Shown piece by piece: positions 8,065-12,197 of a stretch of 64,000 nt of DNA; position 1 is the stretch's first letter; the number at the start of each line of letters is the position of its first letter. The stretch is from positions 1 to 64,000 of the forward strand of contig JAJZPM010000008.1 in the NCBI GenBank assembly GCA_021811105.1, read 5' to 3'. The notes beneath the pieces were generated by a model. It was not told where the DNA came from and made no database searches. It saw only the letters and a list, made by a program, of their open reading frames with translations. The position numbers were made by a program, and so were the translations under genes. The DNA comes from Nitrospirota bacterium (GTDB lineage: Bacteria; Nitrospirota; Thermodesulfovibrionia; Thermodesulfovibrionales; UBA6898).

Positions 8065-8277
8065 TCAAGGAATTGCGATATATTCAGCAATAGAAGTTGA
8101 TGGGGGGATAGGCAGATTATCCTCTAACAAACCCTTCACATGCATTTCGATTGCTCCATGCATGTTTTTCTCAGCTTCCTCCCGTGTTGAGCCTGTAGCA
8201 ATACAACCTGGCAAATCGGGCGAATAAGCCGAATAGTTGCGCTCTGCCTTTTCAATTACGATGAGAAATCGATGCAT
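8065..8277 (-). CDS. hicB: HicB-family antitoxin
   Basis: The 70-residue protein shows the HicB (UPF0150) partial RNase-H-like fold: YSAYSPDLPGCIATGSTREE followed by an amphipathic helix (AEKNMHGAIEMHVKGLLE). It neutralises HicA and normally represses its own operon. Its ATG directly follows the hicA stop codon, and the SD (AAGGAGGTG) lies inside the end of hicA, so the two are translationally coupled. It lacks the C-terminal DNA-binding domain of the longer HicB forms, so autoregulation would need another route. The pair is a type II toxin-antitoxin module. Confidence 0.88.
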   Translation of the reverse strand: MHRFLIVIEKAERNYSAYSPDLPGCIATGSTREEAEKNMHGAIEMHVKGLLEDNLPIPPSTSIAEYIAIP

Positions 8278-8472
8278 CTATTTCACCTCCTTGAGTTGCG
8301 CCTGTTTAAAAACACTGTTAAGAGTGCCAGGGGCCAAATCGTCATTCGGATGACCTGCGATAGTCACCCTGCCGGATTTTGTCCGGTGTTTATATTGACG
8401 GTGACTGCCTTTCGTGTCCACGAGGTACCAGCCGTCTGCCTCTATTAGCCTTATAATATCACGCACCTTCAT
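8278..8472 (-). CDS. hicA: HicA-family mRNA interferase toxin
   Basis: A 64-residue dsRBD-fold ribonuclease of the HicA (YcfA) family. Diagnostic segments are KVRDIIRLIEADGW at the N-terminus and GSHRQYKH in the middle, where the His is the catalytic residue, followed by VTIAGHPNDDLAPGTL. It cleaves mRNAs when not bound by HicB. It is the first gene of the leftward pair, with hicB starting right after its stop. Toxin-first order is typical for hicAB. Confidence 0.9.
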   Translation of the reverse strand: MKVRDIIRLIEADGWYLVDTKGSHRQYKHRTKSGRVTIAGHPNDDLAPGTLNSVFKQAQLKEVK

Positions 8473-10556: not shown

Positions 10557-11118
10557 TTGGTTTTTAGAGAACTTCAATCGCTTCAGAGAACCCTTCCCGA
10601 TAAGATAGCGGCCTTTGAGAGGCAGCGGCTTCTGAACCTTATCGACAGCAATATCAAAAGAAGAGAAATCGAGCGCGCCATGGGGTTTGCCGAAGAACTC
10701 TTTAAGAAAGAGATCCAATTTGCTTTGATCAGCAGGACAAGGCTTCTGATAAAATGTATTTTCATAATGGACGAGGTTCTCAGGAGAATACTTTCAGCGA
10801 ATTGAAGTCGCAATGCAATCTGGATTACGTTGCCGTAAGAAGGCTTCACGGCAATCACCTTTATATGATGTCCGCCATCCTTACGCATAACCTTTTTAGG
10901 GAGCTTCATATGCTCGCGCATGAAAGAACCAGGAGAACTACCGAAAAAGGACCGCCCTTTGGGAATTCACGGAAGCTAATACTCTCAGAAGGACGCTTTT
11001 GCAGAGGGCCGGACGCCTTACCGAACCCGGCGGTACGCTTACGCTCACAATGAGCGGCAATCCGACAGTCCAAAAGGGTGTTTTGCATTATCTCCATCGA
11101 CTCAAACACGCTGCATGA
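10557..11118 (+). pseudogene. IS1380-family transposase remnant (C-terminal part, frameshifted)
   Basis: From 10739 one frame reads ...SDKMYFHNGRGSQENTFSEL and continues with RRLHGNHLYMMSAILTHNL, the hallmark C-terminal region of IS1380-type DDE transposases. Near 10945 the homology moves to another frame (TALWEFTEANTLRRTLLQRAG and LTLTMSGNPTVQKGVLHYL), ending with TGA at 11118. An in-frame stop lies just upstream of the first segment. The N-terminal two thirds are missing. The frame at 10557-10805 (82 codons) overlaps and may be older debris; I could not assign it. The element is dead. A candidate terminal repeat lies 10 bases downstream (11129). Confidence 0.8.
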
Positions 11119-11277: not shown

Positions 11278-11466
11278 TTAATCTACTGATATGTCTTCTG
11301 GCCCGATCCAGACTTCTTTCCCTTCTTTCCAAACCACAACAGGATTGCCTGCCTTTTTGTGCTTTAACAAAGCATCCCGTACGCCGCGCGCCAGAGCCTC
11401 GGTGATCCTGTCAGGATCGGCAAAGGCCTCGGTGATCTTGTCTCTATGTTCTTCTTTGACTGCCAT
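11278..11466 (-). CDS. Small conserved partner of a zeta-toxin-like ATPase
   Basis: A 62-residue protein starting at the ATG 11466-11464. The tail KHKKAGNPVVVWKEGKEVWI and the mid-part DRITEALARGVRDALLKHK match a small family that I recall next to zeta-toxin-like genes. It overlaps the end of the upstream kinase gene by 23 bases in another frame, so it is translated as the second cistron. The longer in-frame extension to 11787 lies inside the kinase gene and is not protein-like. It may be the antitoxin or cofactor of the kinase; this is inference from position and size only. No DNA-binding motif is evident. Confidence 0.7.
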   Translation of the reverse strand: MAVKEEHRDKITEAFADPDRITEALARGVRDALLKHKKAGNPVVVWKEGKEVWIGPEDISVD

Positions 11467-12052
11467 AAGTGTCTTCAATATTATGCCAGAGGGAAGAATC
11501 GTTTGCAAGCAGGCTCTTTTCTTTTTCACCATAGGCAAGTAATCGCGGCTTCCTCGCCGCCGAGTTGTCATAAAAATACCATGTATCTGCAATAGGACGA
11601 TACAGCTGAAAAAAGTTCCGAATGCCTGCATGATAACGCCGCCGGATGGTTTCTTCCGGTACATTGTGCCCGCCCATACGCACCCTTTCAGCCACGCGGC
11701 TGATAGCGAATTCTTCGTTGGGAAGCCAAAGAAAGACAAGATGAAAGTCATAATCGGATTTTCGCAGATCAGAGATCCAAGGGGCAAAAGTACGACTAGC
11801 CAGTGTTGTTTCGAAAGCGAAATTTAAGCGCTTCTTTGCGAGGTAATGTATGCGCTCAAGCATCACACGTCCCGCATGAAAAACCGCACTCTCCGGCCTA
11901 AATCCGGAAAGACCCTGGGCGATCAGGTCCGCATTCACGAACTCGGCAACCTCCAGAGTGCCCTTTAATAACGACGGAGCTGTCGTTGATTTGCCTGCGC
12001 CGTTGGGCCCGGCGATGACAATAAGGTGGAGTTGTTGTGCCTTTAATGGCAT
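11444..12052 (-). CDS. Zeta-toxin-like P-loop kinase/ATPase
   Basis: A 202-residue zeta-toxin family protein. The Walker A is IAGPNGAGKSTTAPSLL (residues ~12-28), followed by EFVNADLIAQGLS, where the Asp is in the substrate site of zeta toxins, and NFAFETTLASRTF. The lid helix carries arginines (RVAERVRMGGHNVPEETIRRRY). Plasmid zeta toxins phosphorylate UDP-N-acetylglucosamine and poison wall synthesis; chromosomal relatives are less certain. A small gene overlaps its 3' end by 23 bases. No epsilon-type antitoxin is present. The module lies beside an IS remnant and a REP-like repeat, which fits an accessory region. Confidence 0.82.
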   Translation of the reverse strand: MPLKAQQLHLIVIAGPNGAGKSTTAPSLLKGTLEVAEFVNADLIAQGLSGFRPESAVFHAGRVMLERIHYLAKKRLNFAFETTLASRTFAPWISDLRKSDYDFHLVFLWLPNEEFAISRVAERVRMGGHNVPEETIRRRYHAGIRNFFQLYRPIADTWYFYDNSAARKPRLLAYGEKEKSLLANDSSLWHNIEDTYGSQRRT

Positions 12053-12123: not shown

Positions 12124-12197
12124 AGGGACACATCCCATTTTTTTCGACTCGACTTAATTTCCTTTGTAGAGCACATCTAAAAATGGGATGTGTCCCT
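12124..12197. repeat. REP-like long inverted repeat
   Basis: Arms agggacacatcccattttt (12124-12142) and aaaaatgggatgtgtccct (12179-12197) are exact complements of 19 bases, separated by 36 bases. Similar gggacacatccca palindromes are known as REP elements mobilised by RAYT (Y1-type) transposases; no such transposase is in the window. Confidence 0.75.

What the first reader, a model, noticed from the sequence alone, without database searches (positions are those of the whole stretch)
11278..12052. Zeta-toxin-like kinase with an overlapping 62-residue partner
The kinase has Walker A and the ligand Asp; the partner overlaps by 23 bases in another frame and has a conserved GNPVVVWKEGKEVWI tail. 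No epsilon antitoxin is present. The small protein may be a new antitoxin type for chromosomal zeta-like kinases.
Basis: inference. Interest (0 to 1): 0.5.

Follow-up and report, generated by a model that had tools for sequence, protein, structure and literature searches.

The report
Zeta-like kinase with new downstream antitoxin
A bacterial kinase gene related to known growth-arresting toxins is followed, in many distant bacteria, by a small unnamed gene that most likely makes its antidote, pointing to a widespread but unclassified toxin-antitoxin pair that has not yet been tested in the laboratory.

Summary
On the minus strand a 202-aa zeta-fold kinase (11444-12052) overlaps by 23 nt a 62-aa gene (11278-11466) under purifying selection. 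The small protein has no match of note in Pfam, NCBIfam, PADLOC, PHROGs or the PDB.

It is not a local oddity. Scanning GTDB genomes with the small family, 62 of 80 kept loci (about ten phyla) have a zeta-like kinase or a fragment directly upstream; one is a natural fusion. Searching Nitrospirota kinase-first, 19 of 19 full-length close kinases and 42 of 44 sister-clade kinases carry a downstream small protein; the two small families are homologous. Distant kinases (<42% identity) carry none (0 of 24); 16 of 25 loci in that bin have a Phd-like upstream gene instead. Kinases are often broken beside an intact small gene. In Nitrospirota-type loci the kinase gene's end holds a promoter-like element stronger than the protein sequence requires (noticed after the fact).

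Best reading: a toxin-first type II module with an unclassified helix-helix-hairpin antitoxin without a recognised DNA-binding domain. Toxicity, neutralisation and substrate are inferred; the docking model is inconclusive. A zeta-fold toxin with a downstream antitoxin has a precedent (AvrRxo1:Arc1): a new variant, not a new kind.

The parts
11444..12052 (-). Zeta-fold P-loop kinase, 202 aa, putative toxin (first gene)
   Evidence: ORF; Pfam Zeta_toxin 4.8e-10, AAA_33 7.7e-9; best Foldseek matches of a homologue's model are zeta/PezT chains
11278..11466 (-). 62-aa small protein, putative antitoxin (second gene): helix 2-14, helix 18-39, beta hairpin 43-47/50-54
   Evidence: ORF; dN/dS about 0.1 against L002; AlphaFold2 mean pLDDT 85.3
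11444..11466 (-). 23-nt gene overlap; kinase stop lies inside the small gene
   Evidence: the same 23-nt arrangement in many relatives, other overlaps in some
11984..12010 (-). Walker A, GPNGAGKST (kinase residues 15-23)
   Evidence: sequence; G15, N17, G18, G20, K21 invariant in 37 kinases
11927..11929 (-). Asp42 of FVNAD, expected catalytic base (role recalled from zeta/PezT work)
   Evidence: invariant in 37 kinases
11305..11349 (-). conserved hairpin GNPVVVWKEGKEVWI of the small protein (residues 40-54)
   Evidence: alignment of 17 family members; hairpin in the model
11480..11508 (-). promoter-like element inside the kinase gene: TTGCAA, 17 nt, CATAAT preceded by TG; ends 13 nt before the small ATG
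   Evidence: one of 4 promoter-like sites in the scanned 1.2 kb, 1.6 expected; element scores above synonymous recodings in 26 Nitrospirota-type loci (post hoc)

Best explanation
A toxin-first, two-gene type II toxin-antitoxin module. The first gene makes a zeta-fold kinase that, when free, phosphorylates an essential small molecule or nucleic acid and arrests growth (inferred). The second, overlapping gene makes a 62-aa helix-helix-hairpin protein that binds the kinase and blocks it (inferred; a stable partnership is well supported, the site of binding is not known). Coupled translation through the overlap, and in Nitrospirota-type loci perhaps an extra promoter inside the end of the kinase gene, keep the antidote in excess (inferred from sequence). 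The small protein has no recognised DNA-binding domain, so classic autorepression by the antitoxin is unlikely.
For: Small-first survey: kinase or fragment directly upstream in 62 of 80 loci from about ten phyla. Kinase-first survey in Nitrospirota, 101 loci read out of 117 listed rows: small gene downstream of 19 of 19 full-length kinases at >=60% identity, 42 of 44 at 42-60%, 0 of 24 below 42%; in that last bin 16 of 25 loci have an upstream Phd-like gene by sequence pattern, one of which was checked in Pfam (PhdYeFM 1.8e-10). Partner type is clustered on the kinase tree: 7 changes against 29.8 in shuffles; Phd kinases form one clade, 100/100. The two small families are homologous: hhalign 96.6-97.1%, score 53.5 against at most 17.3 in 100 column shuffles. 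Natural fusion in L160. Kinase and small distances correlate, r 0.85. Broken or lost kinases beside an intact small gene, and no full-length close kinase without it. Promoter-like element above synonymous recodings, 0 of 500.
Against: No toxicity or rescue data for this family in what I read; one solitary zeta homologue elsewhere was reported non-lethal (review PMC4803016, passage). 11 of the 80 small-first loci show neither kinase nor C-terminal remnant, two of them (L162, L169) with under 600 nt of upstream sequence. The kinases with the small partner are not one clade: that label needs 6 changes, at least 4 forced, though L160 (fused) is mislabelled there. The retention asymmetry is weak alone: the kinase is over three times longer and would usually break first by chance. 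Docking in the fusion model cannot be judged: pTM 0.72, linker pLDDT below 50, no PAE. The fold is as close to polynucleotide kinases (Z 14.1) as to zeta (Z 14.0), so a non-toxic kinase is possible. The promoter signal was tested only after it was seen, related loci share codons, His and Asn codon choice at the site is only mildly skewed (CAT 12 of 13 against 54 of 78 elsewhere; AAT 11 of 13 against 73 of 127), and outside Nitrospirota-type loci only 2 of 26 reach score 11.
Confidence: 0.7

Rival explanations
1. The small protein is an obligate subunit, chaperone or activator of a non-toxic kinase (for example a nucleic-acid end or nucleotide kinase) rather than an inhibitor.
For: Equal structural closeness to bacterial polynucleotide kinase; Pnkp1 is one of the 16 PDB sequence matches of the kinase profile; coupling alone does not say inhibitor.
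Against: Patchy presence (31 of 395 genomes), Phd-like antitoxin genes in place of it beside more distant kinases, kinase decay with the small gene kept, and the promoter-like element ahead of the small gene alone are not expected of a subunit.
Confidence: 0.2
2. The small family has a role of its own and sits beside the kinase only by shared mobility.
For: 18 of 80 loci lack a kinase HMM match; some orphans sit after other genes, such as a possible HEPN gene in L165 (my reading).
Against: Position and strand are fixed in the great majority; fusion in L160; 61 of 63 full-length kinases at >=42% identity carry it (duplicates removed).
Confidence: 0.06
3. A canonical epsilon/zeta module whose epsilon has diverged beyond recognition.
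For: Zeta fold of the kinase.
Against: The small protein is downstream, 62 aa, helix-helix-hairpin, with no epsilon/PezA match.
Confidence: 0.03

Closest known systems
epsilon/zeta and PezAT toxin-antitoxin systems
   Same: Zeta-fold kinase with Walker A and the conserved Asp.
   Different: Antitoxin comes second, is 62 aa with a hairpin, no epsilon/PezA homology found; kinase shorter (202 aa against 270-272 residues in the zeta chains matched).
AvrRxo1:Arc1 (zeta-fold toxin with downstream antitoxin, shown in E. coli; PMC4938570, passages)
   Same: Toxin gene first; small antitoxin second; antitoxin gene intact even beside toxin pseudogenes.
   Different: Arc1 is described as 3 to 4 short helices, 98 aa in several listed species, with a double-tyrosine motif that this small protein lacks by inspection; toxin much larger.
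EzeT (antitoxin domain fused to a zeta kinase; PMC4826407 and PMC4803016, passages)
   Same: Zeta kinase whose antitoxin can be in cis; L160 here is a fusion too.
   Different: EzeT's antitoxin domain is N-terminal; here it is a separate gene or, in L160, C-terminal.
Phd- or ParD-like upstream antitoxin with zeta-like kinase (e.g. Rv0367c-Rv0366c; PMC6362051, passages)
   Same: Zeta-like kinase with a non-epsilon partner.
   Different: Partner upstream with a ribbon-helix-helix or Phd domain; the Phd kinases seen here are a different kinase clade.
Synechocystis pSYSG zeta kinase plus 59-aa gene (L181; probably sll8004-ssl8003, names inferred from order and size)
   Same: Pair with 4-nt overlap; the 59-aa protein matches the small-family models.
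   Different: PMC4963859 (passages) lists these genes only as related to TA modules that did not meet its criteria; the passages show no test of them.

Membership tests
epsilon/zeta (PezAT) | zeta-fold P-loop kinase | tested here: met
   Pfam Zeta_toxin above its cut-off; Foldseek ranks 1-5 are zeta/PezT for the model of the homologue L160; tied with polynucleotide kinase by VIA-align
epsilon/zeta (PezAT) | Walker A lysine and catalytic Asp | tested here: met
   invariant in 37 kinases; catalytic role recalled
epsilon/zeta (PezAT) | epsilon or PezA antitoxin as partner | tested here: not met
   small protein has no epsilon/PezA match; it is downstream and helix-helix-hairpin
epsilon/zeta (PezAT) | phosphorylates UDP-N-acetylglucosamine | not testable with these tools
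   needs enzyme assay
AvrRxo1:Arc1 | antitoxin gene downstream of a zeta-fold toxin | tested here: met
   gene order only; that the gene is an antitoxin is inferred
AvrRxo1:Arc1 | Arc1 motif KExFD...(Y/L)ExxYY | tested here: not met
   absent from the 62-aa sequence by inspection; motif
type II toxin-antitoxin module | two small adjacent co-oriented genes inherited as a pair | tested here: met
type II toxin-antitoxin module | first protein toxic, second neutralises it by binding | not testable with these tools
   no wet data; fusion L160 and its model are indirect
type II toxin-antitoxin module | antitoxin carries a DNA-binding domain for autorepression | tested here: inconclusive
   no DNA-binding family matched, fold search without significant match; epsilon itself also lacks this role
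Phd-zeta modules | upstream Phd/YefM-type antitoxin | tested here: not met
   pattern absent upstream in all 76 loci read at >=42% identity (duplicates removed); nearest upstream ORFs of the window match nothing in Pfam

The most novel reading that the evidence does not exclude
A large unnamed antitoxin superfamily (helix-helix-hairpin, no DNA-binding domain) is the standard downstream partner of a major branch of zeta-fold kinases across about ten phyla, expressed in excess from a promoter inside the toxin gene in at least one lineage, and guarding kinases that act on a substrate other than UDP-N-acetylglucosamine.
Probability: 0.4. Interest if true: 0.68.

Novelty: new variant of a known kind. 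Interest (0 to 1): 0.54.

Why it matters
Many zeta-like kinases are annotated as toxins without a known antidote. A homologous small partner for a large set of these kinases would turn 'solitary' genes into testable pairs, give the small genes a name and function, and show how one kinase fold recruited several unrelated kinds of antitoxin.

Tried and rejected
Epsilon, PezA, Phd, ParD, HTH or RHH identity of the small protein: no match (sister-clade and other partners). PDB sequence search with the small profile: best E 0.027, taken as chance. Fold search with the small model: nothing at E 0.001 or better; the highest probability in the 50 rows shown is 0.21. Phage origin: none of 4 pattern matches in viral contigs was a relative; two distant kinases among phage records. 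No plasmid record matched the window's small protein at E 0.01.

A wider 'helix-GxP-hairpin' superfamily including the upstream partner of E. coli plasmid-type zeta genes and the partners in L095, L096 and L100: profile probability only 8.9 and 25.4, so not claimed. The Parabacteroides plasmid partner (L184) does not match convincingly either (score at most 4.5). A third component (upstream nucleotidyltransferase) was seen in 2 of 167 loci by pattern. A first column-shuffle control for hhalign gave impossible values (score 209) and was discarded as faulty; the repeat with fresh files and trimmed columns is the one quoted. In one search the L008 row was cut at wrong coordinates and is ignored. 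Alignments A4, A6 and A8 misplaced small proteins or kinase tails and were not folded; A7 was. One search counted L092 and L093 as well as their duplicates; 19 of 19 and 61 of 63 are after removing them. labels L160 'other' because its small domain is in the same ORF, and only 127 of its 141 rows differ. The scan found 89 relatives and kept 80.

Prior print: searches (listings), and passages of Makarova 2009 and TASmania, show no description of this downstream partner; most subscription papers are not in the library.

Full report
What is there. On the minus strand of the window a 202-aa P-loop kinase (11444-12052) overlaps by 23 nt a 62-aa gene (11278-11466) in another frame. The kinase matches Pfam Zeta_toxin (4.8e-10) and AAA_33 (7.7e-9). 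The small protein has no meaningful match in Pfam, NCBIfam, PADLOC or PHROGs. It is a real gene: against L002 dN is 0.148 and dS 1.361 outside the overlap. The genome search found one copy of each. The genome is probably Nitrospirota, judged from the names of its closest relatives.

The small gene goes with the kinase. In the window's phylum the small protein matched 31 of 395 genomes, the window's own included, at 34 places. Of 33 places read, 20 have an intact kinase upstream, 7 a broken one, 1 is cut by a contig end and 5 have no kinase HMM match. A scan of GTDB genomes with the family alignment found 89 relatives and kept 80: 46 have an intact separate kinase directly upstream, 1 is fused to it, 13 have a broken one, 2 are cut by a contig end and 18 have no match. 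Of those 18, six keep a C-terminal kinase remnant by tblastn (L106, L118, L120, L133, L149, L168; E from 6e-10 to 0.009), one starts at a contig end (L132), and 11 show nothing, two of them (L162, L169) with under 600 nt of upstream sequence. The two surveys share some genomes. Record titles and tree labels name Nitrospirota, Thermodesulfobacteriota, Planctomycetota, Cyanobacteriota, Chloroflexota, Pseudomonadota, Armatimonadota, Acidobacteriota, Myxococcota and candidate phyla.

The kinase goes with the small gene. A kinase search of the phylum matched 99 of 390 genomes; I read 101 loci out of its 117 listed rows. Full-length kinases at 60% identity or more to the window's: 19 of 19 have the small gene downstream (18 of 18 without the window). 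At 42-60%: 42 of 44; of the two exceptions L195 has a 242-aa downstream ORF whose start resembles the small family (my reading), and L200 has none. Below 42%: 0 of 24; 16 of the 25 loci in that bin have a Phd-like upstream gene by sequence pattern, one of which was checked and matches Pfam PhdYeFM at 1.8e-10; the other nine have other neighbours. Broken kinases still have the small gene in 5 of 7 and 6 of 6 cases. On a tree of 141 kinases the partner types need 7 changes against 29.8 in shuffles, and the 17 Phd kinases form one clade; the small-bearing kinases are not one clade (6 changes, at least 4 forced), and near-copies inflate the clustering. Four named cyanobacterial plasmids carry the same arrangement, annotated 'zeta toxin family protein' plus 'hypothetical protein', and all four small proteins match the family models.

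Two families of small partner are one. The sister-clade partner (mostly 50-80 aa, usually a 4-nt ATGA overlap) aligns with the window's family over the long helix and hairpin: hhalign probability 96.6, 97.1 on trimmed columns, score 53.5 against a maximum of 17.3 in 100 column shuffles and 19.2 reversed.

Structure. The small protein is predicted as helix 2-14, helix 18-39 and a hairpin 43-47/50-54, mean pLDDT 85.3, pTM 0.57, with residues 21-60 above 90 on average. No PDB fold match is significant; it is small, so this is weak evidence for novelty. One betaproteobacterial locus (L160) encodes kinase and small domain as one 248-aa protein. Its model has mean pLDDT 89.8 and pTM 0.72, with a low-confidence linker at 190-200; both domains are confident, their relative position is not established. 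The kinase part is best matched by zeta and PezT chains in Foldseek, and equally by polynucleotide kinases and zeta in VIA-align, Z about 14, rmsd 3.3, 150-171 residues. By sequence profile no PezT or zeta chain was reached at E 0.01, so the substrate cannot be assumed.

How it probably works. Gene order, overlap, absence where Phd-like antitoxins stand, fusion, and decay of the kinase while the small gene persists all fit a toxin followed by its antitoxin. The decay argument is weak alone, because the kinase is a longer target. A sigma-70-like element (TTGCAA, 17 nt, TG-CATAAT) lies in the last kinase codons, 13 nt before the small ATG; it is one of 4 such sites in the scanned stretch, 1.6 expected. 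Having noticed that it recurs, I tested it: in 26 Nitrospirota-type loci the mean score (hexamer matches plus 2 for TG) is 10.42; 500 synonymous recodings of the same proteins average 8.28 (sd 0.55) and none reaches it; 18 of 26 loci score 11 or more against 5.24 expected, 11 at most. The test is post hoc and related loci share codons by descent, so the true significance is smaller. Codon choice at the site is only mildly skewed: CAT 12 of 13 against 54 of 78 elsewhere, AAT 11 of 13 against 73 of 127. Where the WHN residues are replaced, several loci still offer TATTAT or TATAAT there (L006, L007, L012, L023, L024, L027, L028), but L015, L021, L025 and L026 do not. Elsewhere the signal is weak: 2 of 26 loci at 11 or more, 11 of 500 recodings reach the mean. 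If real, it would give the antidote its own transcript with a very short leader (inferred). Kinase and small distances correlate with r 0.85, 0 of 2000 permutations, but shared ancestry and duplicate rows inflate this.

Compared with what is known. A zeta-fold toxin with a downstream antitoxin has a tested precedent, AvrRxo1:Arc1, where the antitoxin gene also stays intact beside toxin pseudogenes (PMC4938570, passages); Arc1 is a different protein. EzeT carries an N-terminal cis-antitoxin (PMC4826407, PMC4803016, passages). Rv0366c has an upstream ribbon-helix-helix partner (PMC6362051, passages). The Synechocystis type II survey lists the pSYSG genes here only as related to TA modules and not meeting its criteria (PMC4963859, passages). 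I found no description of this downstream partner in the searches named under Tried and rejected.

Verdict. The antitoxin reading is the best one (0.7) but rests on comparative evidence; toxicity and neutralisation remain to be shown.

Noticed in passing
window 8065-8472, minus strand: A HicA toxin gene (Pfam 1.5e-22) followed by a HicB-like antitoxin gene (2.2e-13): a second toxin-antitoxin pair about 3 kb from the finding.
   Followed up: yes
window 12125-12142 (+) and 12179-12196 (-): An exact 18-nt inverted repeat, GGGACACATCCCATTTTT, just upstream of the kinase gene; two copies against 0.02 expected by chance. Possibly the end of a small mobile element.
   Followed up: partly
window 10754-11053, plus strand: Likely remnant of a DDE transposase (DDE_Tnp_1_4 4.1e-5, below the family cut-off), so the pair may lie in a region with mobile debris.
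   Followed up: no
L165:2033-2620 and L163:1734-2620: Syntrophaceae relatives of the small protein sit without a kinase after a possible HEPN gene (L165) and near a possible nucleotidyltransferase gene (L163); domain names are my reading. May be partner exchange.
   Followed up: no
L226:747-1582, L223, L211: Zeta-like genes on an E. coli plasmid and in two genomes of the window's phylum have an upstream small partner with a GxPIYY...PDG stretch (83 aa in L226, which matches no Pfam family at its cut-off); not shown to be related to the small protein here.
   Followed up: partly
L097, L098 and most of L206-L225 (window's phylum, one family): Repeated operons of a Phd/YefM-like antitoxin gene (about 132 aa) followed by a zeta-like kinase, mostly with a 4-nt overlap.
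   Followed up: partly
L195: Downstream of a sister-clade kinase lies a 242-aa ORF starting at the usual -4 position whose first 40 residues resemble the small family: perhaps a small-domain fusion.
   Followed up: no
L181:1188-1475 (Synechocystis pSYSG) and L062: A minimal nucleotidyltransferase gene (NTP_transf_2, 2e-16 in L181) precedes the kinase in these two loci, of 167 searched by pattern.
   Followed up: partly
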